From positions 1-64,000 of the forward strand of contig REAB01000071.1 in NCBI GenBank assembly GCA_004293645.1: 64,000 nt of DNA. The letters are read 5' to 3'. Below the pieces are notes generated by a model that was not told the DNA's origin, searched no databases, and was given only the letters and a program-made list of their open reading frames with translations. This document shows positions 24,310-40,324 of the stretch, piece by piece. Numbering within the stretch: position 1 is the first letter of the stretch; every line of letters begins with the position of its first letter. The translations under genes were made by a program, and so were the position numbers. The stretch comes from Cytophagia bacterium. GTDB taxonomy: Bacteria > Bacteroidota > Bacteroidia > Cytophagales > Spirosomataceae.

Positions 24310-25101
24310 TTACAGCTTATTGTCGGCTTTCAAATAAGTTTTGTTACCGTTTGAGTTGATGTAATACTGTCCGCCGCGTGGCCCTTCGTAAATGGTACGG
24401 CCTTTGTCATCTTTACCCATCGCTTTGTCAGCGCCAGCCACTTTGGTACGGGTAGAGGGAGCGGCTTCGGGGCTATTGTCGTTTTTGTTCGACTTAAAAG
24501 TCGTTGCTTTCTTTTCGGTTTTTTCTTCTTTTTCTTTCTTTGGTTTCTCGCTTACGCGGTCGGCTACTTTTTCTTGCTTGGTTTTTTTGTCAGTTTTTTC
24601 TTCGTCTTTCTTTACTTTTTTATCGGCTTTGTCGGCTTTTTCTTCGTCCTTTTCTTTCTTGGTTTTTTTGTCAGCTTTTTCTTCGTCTTTTTCTTTCTTG
24701 GTTTTTTTGTCGGCTTTTTCTTCGTCTTTCTTTACTTTTTTATCGGCTTTGTCAGCTTTTTCTTCGTCTTTTTCTTTCTTGGTTTTTTTGTCGGCTTTTT
24801 CTTCGTCTTTCTTTACTTTTTTATCGGCTTTGTCGGCTTTTTCTTCGTCCTTTTCTTTCTTGGTTTTTTTGTCAGCTTTTTCCTTTTTGTCGTCCTTGTC
24901 TTCTTTCACTTTTTTGGCGGCATCTTTCTCGGCCTTTTTGGCTGCCTTGGCGGCATCTTTTTCAGCTTTCTTGGCTGCTTTGTCGGCATCGTCGGCTTTG
25001 GCTTTTTTCTCTTTTTTGGGTTGGGCTTCTTGTTGAGCAACGGCCTCAAACCAGATGCCAGCACTCAAAAATGCTACGAGTAGAATGAATACTTTTTTCA
25101 T
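24310..25101 (-). CDS. Exported Lys/Glu/Asp-rich repeat protein with a C-terminal PBCV-type basic adaptor motif
   Basis: 263 residues. An N-terminal signal peptide (MKKVFILLVAFLSAGIWFEA, cleavage near VAQ-Q) leads into an Ala/Lys-rich segment, then residues ~75-178 are a tandem of two units, KADKKTKKEKDEE (A) and KADKADKKVKKDEE (B), in the order A-B-A-B-A-A-B-A'. The last ~30 residues, RTIYEGPRGGQYYINSNGN-KTYL, match the short 'GPRGG.YY.N..G.KTY' motif seen in phycodnavirus basic adaptor proteins and many bacterial surface proteins. The highly charged helix may be a flexible spacer in the periplasm or wall. Repeat number may vary by slippage. Function unknown. Confidence 0.8.
   Translation of the reverse strand: MKKVFILLVAFLSAGIWFEAVAQQEAQPKKEKKAKADDADKAAKKAEKDAAKAAKKAEKDAAKKVKEDKDDKKEKADKKTKKEKDEEKADKADKKVKKDEEKADKKTKKEKDEEKADKADKKVKKDEEKADKKTKKEKDEEKADKKTKKEKDEEKADKADKKVKKDEEKTDKKTKQEKVADRVSEKPKKEKEEKTEKKATTFKSNKNDNSPEAAPSTRTKVAGADKAMGKDDKGRTIYEGPRGGQYYINSNGNKTYLKADNKL
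24568..24880. repeat. Tandem coding repeat (39-42 bp units)
   Basis: The DNA behind the A/B units of the Lys-rich protein; units are near-identical at the base level (ttttttgtcggctttttctt and variants), alternating 39 and 42 bp. Recent duplication is likely. Confidence 0.85.
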
Positions 25102-32924: not shown

Positions 32925-33710
32925 TTAGTTGTTGGTGAACAACTTCTTCAAACGACTGGCACTGTTGATGGCTTGTCCTTTTACTGTTTCTAAGGTTGAG
33001 AACACAATTTCTTGTTGTTTTTCGGCCAACTGCAAGCCACCTTTTACGGCTTTGTTGGTGATTTTCTGCCATTTTTCGCCGTTGGCTATTGCACCTTCTA
33101 CCAATACGTCGGCAGTTTCTAAGGCTACTTCGTTGGCATTTTTGGCTGCTTTTTTTGCATTTTCAATGCGCTCCGACAAGTTCAAATCGGCAATGGCTTT
33201 TTGGGCAGTTTTCATGATATTGCTGCGAAACTTGCTGGTGTTTTCTACGGCTTCGTCCACCATTTCAACGGCAGTGGCTTTTACTTTCAAATTCATTTTA
33301 TTGGCAGTTTCTTTGGCATCGTTCAACCGCTCGTTGATTTCCATGTTTTTCATGGCATCTTTGGCCAGTTTGGCACTCACGGTCTTGGCTTTTTTACCCG
33401 TCTTTTTTACGTCTTTCATCACTTCGGTAGCGGTTTTGGCTACTTGTTTGTTTACGTTTTTGGCGGTGGCTTTTATTTTACTCACGTTTTCTTCAATGTC
33501 GAGCGTTTCTACTACTTCTTTCACGCCTGTCATTACCGAATCTTTCAAGTTTTGGCTTGTTTCGGTTACTTCGGCCATTACTTCGTTGGCCGTTTCTACT
33601 ACTTCTGCTTGGATTTCTTTGGCAGTTTCGTTTACAGAATCCATGATTGTTTTACTTTTTTTGGTGGTAGTTTTTACTACTTTGTTCGATTTTTTGCTGG
33701 TCTTTTCCAT
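32925..33710 (-). CDS. Large phasin-like amphipathic helical protein
   Basis: 261 residues, almost all helix, no signal peptide. The N-terminal two thirds is a run of apolipoprotein-like heptads (ETAKEIQAEVVETANEVMAE, NVNKQVAKTATEVMKDVKKT, NKMNLKVKATAVEMVDEAVE). The C-terminal part, ALETADVLVEGAIANGEKWQ to GGLQLAEKQQEIVFSTLETV, clearly resembles the small neighbouring protein at 33795-34172 and phasins, which coat polyester or lipid granules. It has its own promoter with SARP-like direct repeats. An alternative reading is a LEA-like stress protein. Granule binding is inferred from sequence type and context. Confidence 0.7.
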   Translation of the reverse strand: MEKTSKKSNKVVKTTTKKSKTIMDSVNETAKEIQAEVVETANEVMAEVTETSQNLKDSVMTGVKEVVETLDIEENVSKIKATAKNVNKQVAKTATEVMKDVKKTGKKAKTVSAKLAKDAMKNMEINERLNDAKETANKMNLKVKATAVEMVDEAVENTSKFRSNIMKTAQKAIADLNLSERIENAKKAAKNANEVALETADVLVEGAIANGEKWQKITNKAVKGGLQLAEKQQEIVFSTLETVKGQAINSASRLKKLFTNN

Positions 33711-33754: not shown

Positions 33755-33791
33755 CAAAGGTAAATGCGGCGAGTTACAACTCAGTTACAAC
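33755..33791 (-). promoter_or_regulatory. Promoter with 11-bp-spaced direct repeats (large phasin-like gene)
   Basis: Minus-strand -7 box TACCTTTG (33762-33755). Upstream are two copies of TGTAACT, seen as agttaca at 33772-33778 and 33783-33789 on the + strand. They are 11 bp apart, and the nearer one is 9 nt from the -7 box. The arrangement is the same as at 34202-34236. Confidence 0.8.
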
Positions 33792-33794
33792 TAT

Positions 33795-34172
33795 TTAGGC
33801 GGTTGCTTTTTTGGTTTTAGGACCTCTTTTCTTGGCTACTACGGGGGTAGCTTCGGTCAACTCTACGGCCATACTTTCGGCTTTGTTGGCCACAGGTTGG
33901 CGGTTTACAATTTTCTGTATGCGTCCGCTGCTTTTCAACAAATGTGCTTTGATGGCTTCCAAGGTAGTAAATGCCATATCCTGTTGTTTTCCTAAGATGG
34001 CAACACCGCCCTTCATGGCTTTCTCAAACACATTTTGCCACTGCTGGGCTACGGCCAACGTACCATCTACCAAACCTTCGGTGGCTTGGAGGGCGTTGCT
34101 GTTTAATGTGGCTACTTGATTTTTGATTGTTTCTACCCGATTGGCTTTATTTTTTGAAGTATTAGCTTTCAT
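33795..34172 (-). CDS. Small phasin-like protein
   Basis: 125 residues. The central region NSNALQATEGLVDGTLAVAQ, then QWQNVFEKAMKGGVAILGKQ and QDMAFTTLEAIKAHLLKSSG, has the phasin pattern and aligns with the C-terminus of the larger neighbour, so the two are paralogues. The C-terminal tail VVAKKRGPKTKKATA is basic and resembles the Lys/Ala-rich or AT-hook-like tails of granule proteins that also bind DNA. It has its own direct-repeat promoter directly after the regulator gene. Phasin function is inferred. Confidence 0.7.
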   Translation of the reverse strand: MKANTSKNKANRVETIKNQVATLNSNALQATEGLVDGTLAVAQQWQNVFEKAMKGGVAILGKQQDMAFTTLEAIKAHLLKSSGRIQKIVNRQPVANKAESMAVELTEATPVVAKKRGPKTKKATA

Positions 34173-34201
34173 CTTTTTCGTGTTTTTTAAATTTGATGAT
34201 G

Positions 34202-34236
34202 CAAAGCTAAGGCGACTGAGTTACAGCTCAGTTACA
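34202..34236 (-). promoter_or_regulatory. Promoter with 11-bp-spaced direct repeats (small phasin-like gene)
   Basis: Minus-strand -7 box TAGCTTTG (34209-34202). Copies of TGTAACT (agttaca on +) at 34219-34225 and 34230-34236, 11 bp apart, the nearer one 9 nt from the -7 box. The downstream leader gatgatg is also shared with the other promoter. Confidence 0.8.
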
Positions 34237-34241
34237 AATTT

Positions 34242-35054
34242 CTACACGCTCGAAATTTTCTGAAAAAGTTGTTTGGTTTCGGGAAGTGGGGCTACGCCAA
34301 ACTCGGCTTTGAGCATTTTTTCGCACTGTTGGTACGTTTTGATGGCCATGGGGCGGTTGCCTTTCTGAAAATACGCCTGCATCTGAATGCGGTAGGCATC
34401 TTCCCAGGTAGGGTCTATGAGAAGGGCTTGCTGCGTAAGGCGTACGCTTTCCATGGGGTTTTCGGTAATAATTAGCTCGCTGAGGGTAACAATAGCGCCC
34501 AGCGTAAGTACTTGCAAACGCTCGCGCTCGTCGCAGGGCCAATCTTCGTAGAGGCGGTCGGGTAGATATACGCCTCGGTGCAACTCAATGGCCTCTCTAA
34601 AAGCCAGTTGCGCCATTTTAGGAGCATCATTCAAGAGTTGATTTCCGAGGGCAATGTATGCTTCAAGGGCATCGGCATCTATCCAAATGGCATCGGCGTT
34701 GAGTTGATAAGCCAGCCCTTGCCGCGTAATGTATTGCGTGTCGGCGTGGCTTTTGCGGGCGGGTTCGAGCACTTTGTTGATGCCGTGCAGGGCTACTTTA
34801 AAATACGAGTCGCCGCTGTCGAGGTCTTCTTCCCAAAGTCGGTCTAAGATTTGCTCTTTGTGTTGGGCTTTTCGGTGGCGCGAGGTTATCAAAAACTCAA
34901 ACAATTCGACGGTTTTGCTGCGGCCCCATTCTTTGGGGGCTACTACTGCACCGTGGCGGCGTACTTGAAAATTGCCCAGCGTTTGTACCCAAACGTGCGT
35001 GTTTTCTTTTTTTGCCGCAATTGCCCGCATTTTTTCCTCAAAAAAGGCTTTCAT
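34242..35054 (-). CDS. SARP/BTAD-type transcriptional activator
   Basis: 270 residues. The N-terminal ~110 residues (VQTLGNFQVRRHGAVVAPKE, WGRSKTVELFEFLITSRHRK, KEQILDRLWEEDLDSGDSYF) form an OmpR-like winged helix as in AfsR/SARP proteins. Residues ~120-270 are a BTAD, a TPR-like domain (DADALEAYIALGNQLLND, AFREAIELHRGVYLPDRLYE, DAYRIQMQAYFQKGNRPMAI). There is no ATPase or sensor domain, so it is a small SARP-like activator. Its start overlaps the stop of the upstream gene (ATGA), implying coupling. Its 3' end abuts a promoter carrying SARP-style direct repeats, so the phasin-like genes are its likely targets. Confidence 0.85.
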   Translation of the reverse strand: MKAFFEEKMRAIAAKKENTHVWVQTLGNFQVRRHGAVVAPKEWGRSKTVELFEFLITSRHRKAQHKEQILDRLWEEDLDSGDSYFKVALHGINKVLEPARKSHADTQYITRQGLAYQLNADAIWIDADALEAYIALGNQLLNDAPKMAQLAFREAIELHRGVYLPDRLYEDWPCDERERLQVLTLGAIVTLSELIITENPMESVRLTQQALLIDPTWEDAYRIQMQAYFQKGNRPMAIKTYQQCEKMLKAEFGVAPLPETKQLFQKISSV

Positions 35055-35584
35055 TTGGTCTTTTTTGACAATTTATCTACTTTCTGATTGAGGGCTTTTA
35101 TTTCACTCGCCATGTTTTCGAGCAGCCCCATCATTTGCCGAAAATCTGATTTGGAGGAACTACGCCATTCGTCAATTTCTAGGTTTTTGCCAATGGTATC
35201 TTCTATTTTTTGGTTGATGCTATCGCTTACGTACTGAATCTGGTCTTGAATCTGCGCCACCTGCTTTTTGGGGTCTTTGATGGAGTCCATTACGAGTTTG
35301 GGCGTTACGGCGGCGGCTTTTTTCCAGAGGTCGAGGCTCTTGGCCAAAATCCCTTTTTGCTCTTCTGGCGACTTGTCTTCGACGGCCTGCGTGGTGAGTT
35401 CGGCCAGTTTTTCTTGCACAAATTTCACAAACTCATCGGGTTCAGAAAATCGTTTTTCATCGCCGCCTTGCACGTGCCTGATGTTGCCCCGCCACTGGAT
35501 TTGCGGTTCGCCTTGCTCATTATTATAAATTTTCTGGGTAAATCTTAGCACAAAAGAGGCAGTTTCTTCTTTTTTTGCAGCCAT
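35051..35584 (-). CDS. Coiled-coil protein upstream of the SARP-like regulator
   Basis: 177 residues, no signal peptide. An N-terminal strand segment (SFVLRFTQKIYNNEQGEPQI, WRGNIRHVQGGDEKRFSEPD) gives way to helices and a C-terminal coiled coil (FRQMMGLLENMASEIKALNQKVDKLSKKTK region). LWKKAAAVTPKLVMDSIKDP recalls granule-associated or PHA-synthase accessory proteins in a loose way only. It overlaps the regulator by 4 nt (ATGA). It may act on the regulator or on the same granule. Not assigned to a named family by me. Confidence 0.6.
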   Translation of the reverse strand: MAAKKEETASFVLRFTQKIYNNEQGEPQIQWRGNIRHVQGGDEKRFSEPDEFVKFVQEKLAELTTQAVEDKSPEEQKGILAKSLDLWKKAAAVTPKLVMDSIKDPKKQVAQIQDQIQYVSDSINQKIEDTIGKNLEIDEWRSSSKSDFRQMMGLLENMASEIKALNQKVDKLSKKTK

Positions 35585-35674: not shown

Positions 35675-36769
35675 ATGTCTTACTACCACAAAATTAGAGC
35701 ATTAACAAAGCAAGTTCCTATTGAGTTGGTTGATTTTGAACAGCCACGAGACCAAGCAAGAACCCCAACCCAAGCATCTTCCAATTTTATTACGAACAAA
35801 GAACAGGGCGATTGGGCTGAGAATTTAATAACGAGGGCTATCAATGCCGCTTCAAACAATTTGGTTGCAGTAAAATATGGTAAATCGGACGATTTGGTGG
35901 CAGGCGAAGATGGATTCGATATCTTTTACCAAGATTTTCAACATGAATTAGACACAATAGACAAACGTCCTGACTTACTTATTTTTAAACGAGATGATTT
36001 TGACCCAGATTTAGGGTTCGATATTAGCCAAGTGCCGCATCATCAAATCACCGCATATGTTAGAAAAGCAATAGCTGGTATTGAGGTACGTTCAAGTGCT
36101 TTTTTGATTGACCGTTATGAACAAGCCATGCAAGCGCGAACTGAAAAATTTGTAAAAATGGCTATAGAAACCAAGAACAGAATTTTGAGCGATTACTTAG
36201 ATATTTTACAGCACCCCGCCAGAGAAAACTACATTGAATTGCTGAACGGAATTAATGCTAAAACCTTGGCTGTTACTGATTTTAGAGTGCCGAGTTGGAG
36301 TTCGTCGGCTCGACTTGTTGAACTCAAAGATTTGTTTAGAACCCTCAAAACGTCAATTAGAGAGATACAAAAAAGAGATTACCTTTCTATTACCCCCAAA
36401 GTAGAAGACATCAAGGTTGTTTATAAATGGATAGAAACTTTTCATGTTCCTCATTTTTATTTTCAGGTATTTTTCGATAAAGTGTATGGAATTTCTTTTG
36501 AGCAAATTCTTCAAATTATTTCTAATCCAGACAATGACGGGGGCGTATTTTCGGTTGAAACAGACCCAAAAAATCAGAACAAAACAACCATAAAAATAAA
36601 TTCTAAATCTGGATTACTCATTGCCACAAAAGTAGACGAACCGTTGCACGAGAGCGTTAAGAAAGAAATGGACAGGGGTAGGCTATTGTTTTACGTAACT
36701 TTTAAAGGCGGAACGGCCTATCTCGACCTCACTACTTTGAACACCATGCTGAACACCCATTTTGAATGA
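35675..36769 (+). CDS. AccI-like type II restriction endonuclease
   Basis: 364 residues. Candidate PD-(D/E)xK catalytic residues are in [17 protein letters not shown] (Asp) and [20 protein letters not shown] (Glu ... with a following basic residue). The overall pattern recalls the AccI family (target GTMKAC), from memory. It precedes and overlaps by 4 nt (ATGA) an adenine methyltransferase, the usual type II pair. The two genes are visibly more A+T-rich than their neighbours, indicating horizontal transfer between the regulator cluster and the WS/DGAT gene. Confidence 0.75.
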
Positions 36770-38424
36770 GTACATCAAAACTACATACAAGCCTCATTTT
36801 GAGAGATACCATTGAATTGAATTATAAACATTCAGTTTCAATAGCACACCGCAAAAAATTTGCGCAATTTTTTACCCCATTTCCCATTGCCGACCTGATG
36901 GCTAAGTGGATTTTGGGAAATAATGATTTGAAAACTGTTTTAGAACCTGCTTTTGGACTTGGTGTGTTTTCGAGGGCATTGATGGCTCAAAAAGACGATA
37001 TTACGGTGGAAGGTTTTGAAATAGACACAACCATTTTTGACAATGCCAATCGTTATTTTGGCGATTTTGAAAACGTAAAAATCCAATTACAAGATTATAT
37101 ATACAGCAACTGGCAAAATAAATACGACGGCATTATTTGCAATCCTCCCTATTTTAAGTTTCACGATTATGACAGCAAGAGTGTACTCAGAGAAATTGAA
37201 ACACATCTCAAATACAAACTGAACGGCTTCACAAACCTTTACACGTTGTTTTTGTTGAAATCAATTCATCAATTGAAACCAAATGGTCGGTGCGCGTACA
37301 TTATTCCATCGGAGTTTCTAAACGCTGATTATGGTAAGTTAGTGAAGGCTTATTTACTGAAAACGAACGTACTACGACACATTATTGTCATTAATTTTGA
37401 TTCAAATCTTTTTGACGATGCCCTGACAACTGCCTCTATTATTTTGTGTGCCAACGACAATCTAACCAACAAAGTACAGTTTAGTAATGTGCAAGATGTG
37501 CAAGATTTAACCAAAATAGAGCAACTCATTGCCAACTATCCTCATCTTGAAGACTTCCAAACCTTTCTTTGTGCAGACTTAAAGCCCGACATTAAATGGA
37601 AAACATATTATCAACCACAAAATGGTATTCATTTCAAAAATCTTGTTCCATTTTCTAATTATGCCAAAGTAGTGAGAGGTATTGCGACTGGTTCAAACGA
37701 GTTTTTTACGTTCAATGAATCGAAAGCCCAAGCATTTTCAATTCCTGAGCAATGTCTTTTACCTTGCATTTGCAAGGCCACCGATACTAAAAAGCCATTT
37801 TTTACCAAAGCAGATTTTGAACTATTAAAATCAAGCAATAAAAACGTTTTCCTACTCAATGCACTTGGCTCAACCAACCAAAACGTGATTGAATATTTGA
37901 AAAAAGGTGAATTGGAAGCAATAGATAAGAAATTTTTAACCGCCAGCAGAACACCTTGGTACGCCTTAGAAAACCGCCCACCTGCCCCTATTTGGGTTTC
38001 GGTTTTTAATCGAACAGGCTTGCGATTTATCCGAAATGAGGCAAATATTTCAAATCTAACTTCGTACCACTGCATTTACCCAAAGCAACAAAATTTATTT
38101 TTTCAAGTAGAACCCGATTTATTATTTGCTTACCTTTTGACCGAAACAGCCAAACAAATTTTTGAAGACAATAGCCGTGAATACGGCAATGGGCTTCAAA
38201 AATTTGAACCCAATGACATCAACAAAGGGCTAATGCTTGATTTGGGACTATTGAACGAAGAAACAATAGCAAAAATATTGAGTTTATACAACCAATACAG
38301 GTTGGCAGTACTTGAAAATAAAAACAGCGAAGCCATCATTGATGCCATAAATCAACTATTTATTGAGCATTATGCCGAAAACAAGAAACCTAAAAATAGT
38401 TTTACGATGCTTGAAATGGCTTAA
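36766..38424 (+). CDS. Type II DNA adenine methyltransferase (TaqI/Eco57I-like)
   Basis: 552 residues. S-adenosylmethionine motif I is [20 protein letters not shown] near residue 60; the catalytic motif IV is [13 protein letters not shown] near 125 (NPPY, N6-adenine type). [20 protein letters not shown] follows. The C-terminal half, with [17 protein letters not shown] and the later [20 protein letters not shown] region, is the TaqI-like target-recognition domain. It protects the host from the endonuclease encoded just before it. The second subunit (specificity) is not needed in this type. A+T-rich, likely acquired. Confidence 0.9.
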
Positions 38425-38482: not shown

Positions 38483-40324
38483 ATGGCAGAAAAAAACAGT
38501 AAAAAAGAGAAAAAAAACGATTTGCAATCCATCAGCGGCATGGATGCTACATTTTTATACGCCGAAACCCCCACCAGCCCCATGCACGTAGGCTCGGTGG
38601 TGGTCATTGAAGGCTCATTAAAATACGAAATCTTTCGCGCTATTATCAGCTCGCGGCTGCACCTTATTCCCAAACTTCGGCAACGGCTGCTGTACGTGCC
38701 TTTGAGTATTGACTATCCGTATTGGGTGGACGACCCCAACTTCGACCTCGACTTGCACACCAACCACATTGCACTACCGCAGCCAGGCGGCTGGAAACAA
38801 CTCCGCGACGTGGCTTCGCAGGTTTTTAGCGAACCATTGGAGCAAAGTCGCCCACTTTGGTCTATGACATTTATAGAAGGTCTCAATAATATTCCGCAAG
38901 TGCCGCCAGGCTCGGTGGCCATTGTCAGCCGCATTCACCACGTGGCCATTGACGGCATGGCGGGGGCCAGTTTGTTGAGTGTTTTGTTCGATTTGTCGAA
39001 TAGCAAGGGCGAAATACCTGCCCCTAAACCGTTCAATCCCAAGCCTTTGCCCAACGATTTGCAGCTGATTATGAACAGCACCATGAGCTTTGCCAAAGAC
39101 CCGTTCAAGTTTCCGCGCTTGCTCACCGACACGCTCACGGCTACCGTTAAGGCAGGTTTCTTGACCCGCGTGCAGCGGTCGGCGTTGCCCACGGTGCCTT
39201 TCACGGCACCACCCACGCCCTTCAACGGGCTGGTGTCGTCGCGGCGCAAGTGGAACTCGGCCATTTTGGCACTCGACCGCATTTTGAACCTCAAAAACCT
39301 CATGGGAACTACCATGAACGACATCATGCTCGCTATTTGTGCGGGAGCGTTGCGGCGGTATTTGCTCGAAAAAGGTAAACTTCCCCAAAAACCGCTCGTA
39401 GCCATGGTACCCATTTCGACCCGTACCGCTGCCGAAGCCAACGACGTGGACAATCAAATTGCGGCCATGCTTGTGCAGCTCGCCACCAACGTAGCCGACC
39501 CAATTGAGCGGTTGGAGAAAATCAGTGAGAATACCAATCGGGGCAAAACGTACCAGGGAGCAGTGGGGGCCAAAACGCTCGCTCAAATGGCCGAAGCGGT
39601 GCCGTTTGGCGTGGCCAACCAAGCCGCGCGGCTCTACTCTCGGTTTCATTTGGCCGAAAAGCACACACCCGCGCTCAACGTTACAATTACCAACGTGCCT
39701 GGCCCCAAAATTCCGCTTTTTATTCACGGGCATCAGTTGCTGTCGGTGATGGGTATGGCGCCCGTTATAGATGGTATGGGCTTGATTATCACCATTTTTA
39801 GTTACAATGGCTTGGTTACGGTTAGCCCCACTTCCGATGCGAAATCAATGCCCGATATTGATGATTTTACGCGCTACATCAGGGAGTCGGCCAACGAATT
39901 GGAAGCGGTGATTTTGGAACACGTAGCAAAAAAAGAACCAAAAACCGCCAAAAAAGTCGCCAAAGCGAAGTCGGATGTGGTATTTGAAACCATGAAAAAA
40001 CACCTTAAAAAGCAGCCCGAACTCATTTGGCCAGGTACGGGGATGTTTCAGTTTAAGGTAAAAGGCGACGTGGAAACCCTCTGGAAATTAGATTTTAACG
40101 CTGTTCCCGTCAAAATATCGAAAGGAAAAGCCGAAAACCCCGACGCGACCTTTATCGTTGAAGACGAGCATTTGTTGAAAATAGCCATGGGCAAATTGGA
40201 CGTTCAGACGGCCTTTATTCAAGGGCGACTCAAAGTAGAAGGCAATTTTGAAAAAGCAATGCGCGTGGGTAAACTCATTGGCAAATTGCCTAAAATAGAA
40301 GAAAAAACGGACGTTGTTACTTAG
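38483..40324 (+). CDS. Wax ester synthase / diacylglycerol acyltransferase fused to a C-terminal SCP2 domain
   Basis: 613 residues. The N-terminal ~480 residues are a WS/DGAT: ISGMDATFLYAETPTSPMHV, the catalytic IHHVAIDGMAGASLL (HHxxxDG at residues 152-158), and LNVTITNVPGPKIPLFIHGH with the PLW and ND-type motifs. It makes wax esters and/or triacylglycerol from acyl-CoA at the membrane or on granules. A Lys/Ala linker then leads to an SCP2/sterol-carrier domain (~505-600: GTGMFQFKVKGDVETLWKLD, DATFIVEDEHLLKIAMGKLD, AFIQGRLKVEGNFEKAMRVG), which binds lipids. The fusion could hand substrate to the enzyme. The phasin-like genes lie 5 kb to the left. Confidence 0.92.
   Translation: MAEKNSKKEKKNDLQSISGMDATFLYAETPTSPMHVGSVVVIEGSLKYEIFRAIISSRLHLIPKLRQRLLYVPLSIDYPYWVDDPNFDLDLHTNHIALPQPGGWKQLRDVASQVFSEPLEQSRPLWSMTFIEGLNNIPQVPPGSVAIVSRIHHVAIDGMAGASLLSVLFDLSNSKGEIPAPKPFNPKPLPNDLQLIMNSTMSFAKDPFKFPRLLTDTLTATVKAGFLTRVQRSALPTVPFTAPPTPFNGLVSSRRKWNSAILALDRILNLKNLMGTTMNDIMLAICAGALRRYLLEKGKLPQKPLVAMVPISTRTAAEANDVDNQIAAMLVQLATNVADPIERLEKISENTNRGKTYQGAVGAKTLAQMAEAVPFGVANQAARLYSRFHLAEKHTPALNVTITNVPGPKIPLFIHGHQLLSVMGMAPVIDGMGLIITIFSYNGLVTVSPTSDAKSMPDIDDFTRYIRESANELEAVILEHVAKKEPKTAKKVAKAKSDVVFETMKKHLKKQPELIWPGTGMFQFKVKGDVETLWKLDFNAVPVKISKGKAENPDATFIVEDEHLLKIAMGKLDVQTAFIQGRLKVEGNFEKAMRVGKLIGKLPKIEEKTDVVT

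What the first reader, a model, noticed from the sequence alone, without database searches (positions are those of the whole stretch)
33755..35054. SARP/BTAD-type regulator with two matching direct-repeat promoters on adjacent phasin-like genes
Both phasin-like genes carry, upstream of a TAnnTTTG box, two copies of TGTAACT 11 bp apart, and in both the nearer copy is exactly 9 nt from the box (33755-33789 and 34202-34236). Actinobacterial SARP proteins are known to bind heptamer direct repeats with 11-bp spacing placed about 8 bp from the -10 box, so the arrangement here is the same although the phylum and promoter type differ. The regulator gene lies directly upstream, with the first operator 2-40 bp past its stop. 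The -33 region is replaced by the repeats, as expected for an activator. The gene pair plus regulator plus coiled-coil protein would be a compact regulon not described to me in Bacteroidota.
Basis: partly seen in the sequence, partly recalled or inferred. Interest (0 to 1): 0.82.

Follow-up and report, generated by a model that had tools for sequence, protein, structure and literature searches.

The report
SARP switch for storage-granule coat genes
In Bacteroidota, a small DNA-binding protein of a type best known for switching on antibiotic genes in Streptomyces appears to switch on coat-protein genes for carbon-storage granules, through a two-repeat DNA landmark found in all eight genomes where the regulator was detected.

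Summary
TGTAACT-N4-TGTAACT-N9-TAnnTTTG occurs exactly twice in the 4.63-Mb genome, at the two reported places. A Markov model expects about 1e-5.

The 270-aa regulator has a BTAD domain and is collinear with the Streptomyces activator AfsR. Orthologs (35-70% identical) were found in seven other genomes, two of them MAGs. Across all eight genomes, TGTAACY-N4-TGTAACY-N9-YAnnTTYG with up to 1 mismatch gives exactly ten sites, all perfect and all directly 5' of storage-coat-like genes; the reversed pattern gives none. In two genomes the site is on a different contig from the regulator.

In three genomes of another class, the site heads a PHA operon (coiled-coil gene, phasin-like gene, phaE, phaC, phaB, phaA in the one read fully). 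The window's genome and four relatives lack a detectable PHA synthase. In the window and two relatives the operon instead lies divergent to a wax-ester/TAG synthase gene, in the window separated by an AccI restriction-modification cassette.

Best reading: a small SARP-type activator docks on tandem 11-bp repeats next to a Bacteroidota -7 promoter and drives granule/droplet coat genes. Binding, activation and droplet localisation are inferred, not shown. Novelty: new variant of a known kind.

The parts
34242..35054 (-). Small SARP-type regulator: OmpR-like winged helix plus BTAD, 270 aa
   Evidence: BTAD 66.1 bits (cut-off 22.1), Trans_reg_C 19.9 bits, below cut-off; Foldseek best hits AfsR 8k60/8hvr and EmbR 2fez
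34202..34236 (-). Operator/promoter 1: TGTAACT-gagc-TGTAACT-N9-TAGCTTTG, 5' of the 125-aa coat-like gene
33755..33789 (-). Operator/promoter 2: TGTAACT-gagt-TGTAACT-N9-TACCTTTG, 5' of the 261-aa coat-like gene
33795..34172 (-). Phasin-like coat protein, 125 aa (Lys/Ala-rich)
   Evidence: 33% identical over 101 aa to the 261-aa paralogue; no Pfam hit; related to genes 3' of the site in other genomes
32925..33710 (-). Phasin-/apolipoprotein-like coat protein, 261 aa
   Evidence: weak PF01442 Apolipoprotein, 20.4 bits, below cut-off; orthologs in L018 and L019, 39-45% identical
35051..35584 (-). Coiled-coil partner, translationally coupled (overlaps the regulator start codon); conserved N-terminal beta-hairpin motif RGNIRHVQ
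   Evidence: orthologs next to the regulator in every genome examined; overlap seen
38483..40324 (+). WS/DGAT-SCP2 wax-ester/TAG synthase; divergent neighbour of the coiled-coil/SARP operon in L018 and L019
   Evidence: PF03007 183 bits, PF06974, PF02036
40496..41539 (-). GpsA glycerol-3-phosphate dehydrogenase, also near the locus in Lacihabitans
   Evidence: PF07479/PF01210; L018 4667-5668
35675..38424 (+). AccI-type restriction-modification cassette between the two divergent operons; not part of the regulon
   Evidence: PF09545 684.7 bits; type II methyltransferase

Best explanation
The 270-aa protein is a stand-alone SARP-type transcription activator. Two protomers bind side by side, one on each TGTAACY half-site of an 11-bp direct repeat. 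This places them just upstream of the Bacteroidota -7 box (TAnnTTTG), where they hold the primary sigma factor and RNA polymerase on a promoter with a weak or badly spaced -33 element, as AfsR does in Streptomyces. Its targets are coat proteins of carbon-storage inclusions: PHA granules, as part of a whole pha operon, in one lineage, and most likely wax-ester/triacylglycerol droplets in the window's lineage. Shown here: the sites, their fixed geometry, their restriction to these genes, the co-occurrence with the regulator, the domain make-up and the genomic context. Inferred: DNA binding, activation, droplet localisation and the signal, perhaps relayed by the coupled coiled-coil protein.
For: Ten perfect sites in eight regulator-bearing genomes, none elsewhere at up to 1 mismatch, reversed-pattern control zero; about 0.002 exact matches expected in 52 Mb. 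Pairwise identity is 0.94 at motif positions against 0.38 in flanks and 0.40 in spacers, a clear footprint. Site and regulator are on different contigs in G505 and G418, so this is not mere linkage. A 395-genome class scan found the exact pattern only in G000 and G418, both with the regulator. BTAD in 7 of 7 aligned orthologs. AfsR residues D71 (RNAP contact) and W74 (DNA contact) are conserved in the window protein, while base-contact positions T88/R92 are V87/G91, consistent with a different heptamer. PHA operon under the site in G515; phaC in G515/G531/G604. WS/DGAT in 4 of 5 PHA-less genomes and divergent to the operon in L018 and L019.
Against: No binding or expression data. The winged-helix half scores below Pfam's cut-off (19.9 against 26.2 bits) and its predicted structure is low confidence, residues 44-118. 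G418 has neither WS/DGAT nor a PHA synthase detected, so its coat-like protein has no known core. The PHA-lineage phasin-like protein is not recognisably homologous to the window coat proteins (hhalign E 0.32). One of ten sites has CACCTTTG and two have TTCG in place of TTTG.
Confidence: 0.78

Rival explanations
1. The regulator binds these repeats but represses, being released when lipid or polymer accumulates, like PhaR on phaP1 in Ralstonia.
For: Known granule-coat regulators can be repressors (PhaR) or dual (MLDSR). The repeats lie inside the core promoter, where a bound protein could also block polymerase.
Against: Characterised BTAD/SARP proteins are activators. Repeats upstream of and in fixed register with the -7 box, with a TTTG at the long 25-nt spacing, match SARP-activated promoters (PMC10936776). 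A repressor would not need the invariant 9-nt gap seen in 10 of 10 sites.
Confidence: 0.1
2. The repeats are the site of another, unidentified regulator or are an alternative -33 element; the SARP-like gene is only a neighbour.
For: No binding data; an HTH_3-like ORF sits between regulator and coat gene in Lacihabitans.
Against: Site and regulator co-occur even when unlinked; the HTH_3-like ORF is not in the other loci read; the class scan found no site outside regulator-bearing genomes.
Confidence: 0.07
3. The window organism makes PHA by a divergent or missing synthase, and the targets are ordinary PHA phasins.
For: The same regulator heads a real pha operon in G515; G000 is 90.8% complete.
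Against: No class I or class III synthase match in any of the five Bacteroidia genomes beyond two weak E~3e-4 hits; WS/DGAT is divergently adjacent in two and present in four; Kennedy-pathway genes (GPAT-HAD-acyltransferase fusion, GpsA) flank the Lacihabitans locus.
Confidence: 0.15
4. The paired promoters are only a recent duplication of one gene and its upstream region, without regulatory meaning.
For: The two window genes are paralogous (33% over 101 aa) and share GCATCATCAAA after the box.
Against: Flanks of the two sites are only 47% identical while the motif is 100%; the same motif is kept in seven other genomes.
Confidence: 0.01

Closest known systems
SARP family (AfsR SARP domain, ActII-ORF4, DnrI; EmbR) of Actinobacteria
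   Same: Winged helix plus BTAD order; two heptamer direct repeats of 11-bp period just upstream of the core promoter element; AfsR D71 and W74 conserved
   Different: Different phylum and promoter class (TAnnTTTG -7 box); heptamer TGTAACY; AfsR base-contact residues T88/R92 replaced by V87/G91; targets are storage-coat genes, not antibiotic clusters; 9 rather than 8 nt to the core box
PhaR-phaP phasin regulation (Ralstonia, Bradyrhizobium)
   Same: A dedicated regulator controls granule-coat genes
   Different: PhaR is an unrelated protein that associates with PHB and represses phaP1; here a BTAD protein with direct repeats, and no PHA synthase in the window lineage
MLDSR-MLDS of Rhodococcus jostii
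   Same: A regulator dedicated to a major lipid-droplet coat protein that also binds DNA
   Different: MLDSR is an XRE-HTH protein on a 16-bp palindrome in its own operon (PMC5504291)
Bacteroidota WS/DGAT-SCP2 neutral-lipid loci
   Same: Window WS/DGAT is 613 aa with SCP2, the length and domain reported for Bacteroidota (613+/-15 aa; PMC10351704)
   Different: No coat protein or regulator is mentioned for these Bacteroidota loci in the passages read

Membership tests
SARP (BTAD) transcription activators | C-terminal BTAD domain | tested here: met
   PF03704 66.1 bits against 22.1; 7 of 7 aligned orthologs
SARP (BTAD) transcription activators | N-terminal OmpR-type winged helix | tested here: inconclusive
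   PF00486 19.9 bits, below cut-off 26.2; 4 of 7 orthologs match at E<0.1; collinear Foldseek match to AfsR E 3e-6, but the winged-helix region has low pLDDT
SARP (BTAD) transcription activators | Heptameric direct repeats with 11-bp period in target promoters | tested here: met
   10 of 10 sites
SARP (BTAD) transcription activators | 3' repeat about 8 bp from the -10 element | tested here: met
   Constant 9 nt to the -7 box YAnnTTYG, 10 of 10; literature value
SARP (BTAD) transcription activators | Protein binds the repeats and activates transcription | not testable with these tools
   Needs EMSA and in vitro transcription
Phasin families (Pfam) / PHA coat | Match to a Pfam phasin model | tested here: not met
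   No phasin model hit for either window protein, nor for the L059 phasin-like protein in the pha operon
Phasin families (Pfam) / PHA coat | PHA synthase in the genome | tested here: not met
   PF07167 and TIGR01836 absent in G000; met only in G515/G531/G604
MLDSR-type droplet regulator | XRE-HTH protein on a palindrome in its own operon | tested here: not met
   BTAD protein, direct repeats

The most novel reading that the evidence does not exclude
One SARP-type regulator and its operator have been kept while the storage compound changed: the pair drives a complete PHA operon in one class of Bacteroidota and the coat genes of wax-ester/TAG droplets in Bacteroidia, making it a storage-core-independent coat switch, possibly gated by the coupled coiled-coil protein that senses the inclusion surface.
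Probability: 0.45. Interest if true: 0.75.

Novelty: new variant of a known kind. Interest (0 to 1): 0.64.

Why it matters
SARPs are studied as actinobacterial antibiotic activators. A regulator with the same operator geometry on the quite different Bacteroidota -7 promoter would show that sigma adaptation by side-by-side BTAD proteins is not tied to actinobacterial promoters or to RbpA/CarD. It also gives Bacteroidota a candidate dedicated regulator, a candidate coat protein and a marker motif for storage inclusions, where WS/DGAT genes are known but no coat or regulator turned up in the papers searched here. The 35-bp motif is specific enough to find such regulons by pattern search alone: in G418 it did.

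Tried and rejected
Chance: rejected by genome-wide counts and the reversed-pattern control. Other 1-2-mismatch repeat pairs in G000 are no commoner than reversed-pattern controls and lack the box; rejected as regulon members. Pfam phasin families: no match. Coiled-coil protein structure: poor model, pLDDT 53, no structural match with E<0.001; led nowhere. VIA-align of the regulator model was filled by TPR proteins because BTAD dominates; AfsR is not among the rows shown there. Homology of window coat proteins with the PHA-lineage phasin-like protein: not detected. The Saprospiraceae MAG (L021) at first looked like a counter-example, with no repeats beside its regulator, but its site lies on another contig 5' of a coat-like gene. 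Literature searches for SARP family plus Bacteroidetes plus BTAD, and for PHA, Bacteroidetes, phasin and lipid droplet together, returned nothing; the library holds only open-licence papers.

Full report
OBSERVATION. On the minus strand the window carries TGTAACT-N4-TGTAACT-N9-TAnnTTTG at 33789-33755 and 34236-34202, exactly as reported. These are the only two exact matches in the 4.63-Mb genome; a first-order Markov model expects about 1e-5 for the full pattern and 0.02 for the repeat pair. Of 97 TAnnTTTG boxes in the window, only these two have a perfect 7-mer repeat of 11-bp period 6-12 nt upstream. The first operator starts 5 nt after the regulator stop codon.

REGULATOR. The 270-aa product of 34242-35054(-) has BTAD (66.1 bits, cut-off 22.1) after a winged-helix-like region that matches Trans_reg_C at 19.9 bits, below the 26.2 cut-off. 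Orthologs were found in seven other genomes: Lacihabitans sp. LS3-19 (58% identical), a Chitinophagales MAG (70%), a Saprospiraceae MAG (53%), G418 of another family in the same class (58%), and three genomes of one genus in another class, two of which were aligned at 35-37%. The gene is rare: in 119 relatives only the window genome and Lacihabitans have a close match, and a profile found it in 4 of 395 phylum-wide genomes including the window's. The predicted model has its best Foldseek hits in AfsR (8k60, 8hvr) and then EmbR (2fez), spanning both domains; the winged-helix half of the model is of low confidence. In the profile alignment to AfsR, residues D71 (contacts the RNAP beta flap) and W74 (DNA contact) are conserved in the window protein, whereas AfsR T88 and R92, which contact bases (PMC10936776), are V87 and G91. 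The recognition helix FKVALHGINK is nearly invariant among the five Bacteroidia orthologs and becomes FKVALNGLQQ/FKVALNGIQQ in the other class, where the first or both heptamers read TGTAACC. This fits, but does not prove, recognition of the heptamer by this helix.

FOOTPRINT. In the eight regulator-bearing genomes, TGTAACY-N4-TGTAACY-N9-YAnnTTYG with up to one mismatch gives exactly ten sites, all perfect: window 2, Lacihabitans 2, the two MAGs 1 each, G418 1, and G515/G531/G604 1 each. The reversed-pattern control gives zero. Every site lies directly 5' of a coat-like gene, or of the coiled-coil gene that heads the coat/PHA operon. Pairwise identity is 0.94 at motif positions, 0.40 in the spacers and 0.38 in the flanks. 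In the Saprospiraceae MAG and G418 the site and the regulator are on different contigs, so genetic linkage alone does not explain the association. G418 was found by pattern alone in a 395-genome class scan, and its regulator was found afterwards.

PROMOTER LOGIC. Reported SARP sites are direct repeats with an 11- or 22-bp period, the 3' repeat 8 bp from the -10; AfsR binds as a side-by-side dimer contacting sigma region 4, beta flap, beta' and alpha-CTD (PMC10936776). Here the period is 11 bp and the gap to the -7 box is 9 nt in 10 of 10 sites. In 8 of 10, a TTTG overlaps the start of the upstream repeat, 25 nt from the -7 box. By general knowledge of Bacteroidota promoters that is a long spacing for a -33 element, so 'overlapped and badly spaced' is a better description than 'replaced'.

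WHAT IS CONTROLLED. In G515, the site lies 12 nt after the regulator stop and heads: coiled-coil gene, 130-aa phasin-like gene, phaE (PF09712, 95 bits), class III phaC (TIGR01836, 490 bits), phaB, a small coiled-coil-like gene, phaA. The same start of the operon is seen in G531 and G604, which also carry phaC nearby. In the five Bacteroidia genomes, PhaC_N and TIGR01836 searches give nothing beyond two weak E~3e-4 hits. Instead, WS/DGAT is present in four of five. It stands head to head with the coiled-coil/SARP operon in Lacihabitans (87 bp apart) and in the Chitinophagales MAG (145 bp apart). In the window the same divergent pair is split by an AccI-type restriction-modification cassette at 35675-38424. 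Lacihabitans also has a GPAT-HAD-acyltransferase fusion, gpsA and two alpha/beta-hydrolase genes beside the sites, and the window has gpsA next to WS/DGAT. The targets are Lys/Ala/Thr-rich proteins; some match the Apolipoprotein model weakly and below cut-off. They match no Pfam phasin model, and 'phasin-like' is a resemblance. The neutral-lipid reading is an inference from context.

MECHANISM (most likely). Shown: sites, geometry, specificity, co-occurrence, domains and context. Inferred: two SARP protomers occupy the repeats, hold sigma region 4 in place of good -33 contacts, and activate coat transcription when storage begins. The protein has no sensor domain. The coiled-coil protein is coupled to it in the window (overlapping start and stop) and adjacent in all genomes examined, so it is a candidate for the signal relay, perhaps by partitioning to the inclusion surface, as MLDSR is sequestered on Rhodococcus droplets (PMC5504291). 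There is no direct evidence for that step.

LIMITS. Two of the eight genomes came through MAG contigs and the window genome is 90.8% complete. Genome names behind G handles are hidden, so the other class is unnamed. The three PHA-lineage genomes are congeners and count as little more than one independent case. The paired window promoters may share ancestry, although their flanks are only 47% identical.

VERDICT. The finding holds and is stronger than its author could know: a SARP-type regulon outside its usual setting, tied to storage inclusions rather than antibiotics. It is a new variant of a known kind.

Noticed in passing
L013 (and L014, L015), 718-2298 and 2314-2350: In three congeneric genomes of the same family, a MEDS-BTAD protein (526 aa) is followed by ACCAAAG-N4-ACCAAAG-N10-TACATTTG and a cytochrome P450 gene: a second BTAD regulator with an 11-bp repeat beside a -7 box, different heptamer. 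A-rich sequence makes chance harder to exclude.
   Followed up: partly
35675-38424: AccI-type restriction endonuclease and methyltransferase cassette lying between the divergent coiled-coil/SARP operon and WS/DGAT, which are adjacent in two relatives.
   Followed up: yes
L018 10015-10374: In Lacihabitans a 119-aa HTH_3-like ORF sits between the SARP gene and the coat-gene site; absent from the other loci read.
   Followed up: no
L018 10905-12402 and L033 4834-6325: The coat gene is followed by two alpha/beta-hydrolase genes (one Hydrolase_4, monoacylglycerol-lipase-like) in both Lacihabitans and the Saprospiraceae MAG.
   Followed up: partly
24310-25101 (-): 263-aa secreted-looking protein with Lys/Asp/Glu repeats (KKTKKEKDEEKADK) and a C-terminal GPRGGQYYINSNGNKTYLK motif; no Pfam match.
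   Followed up: no
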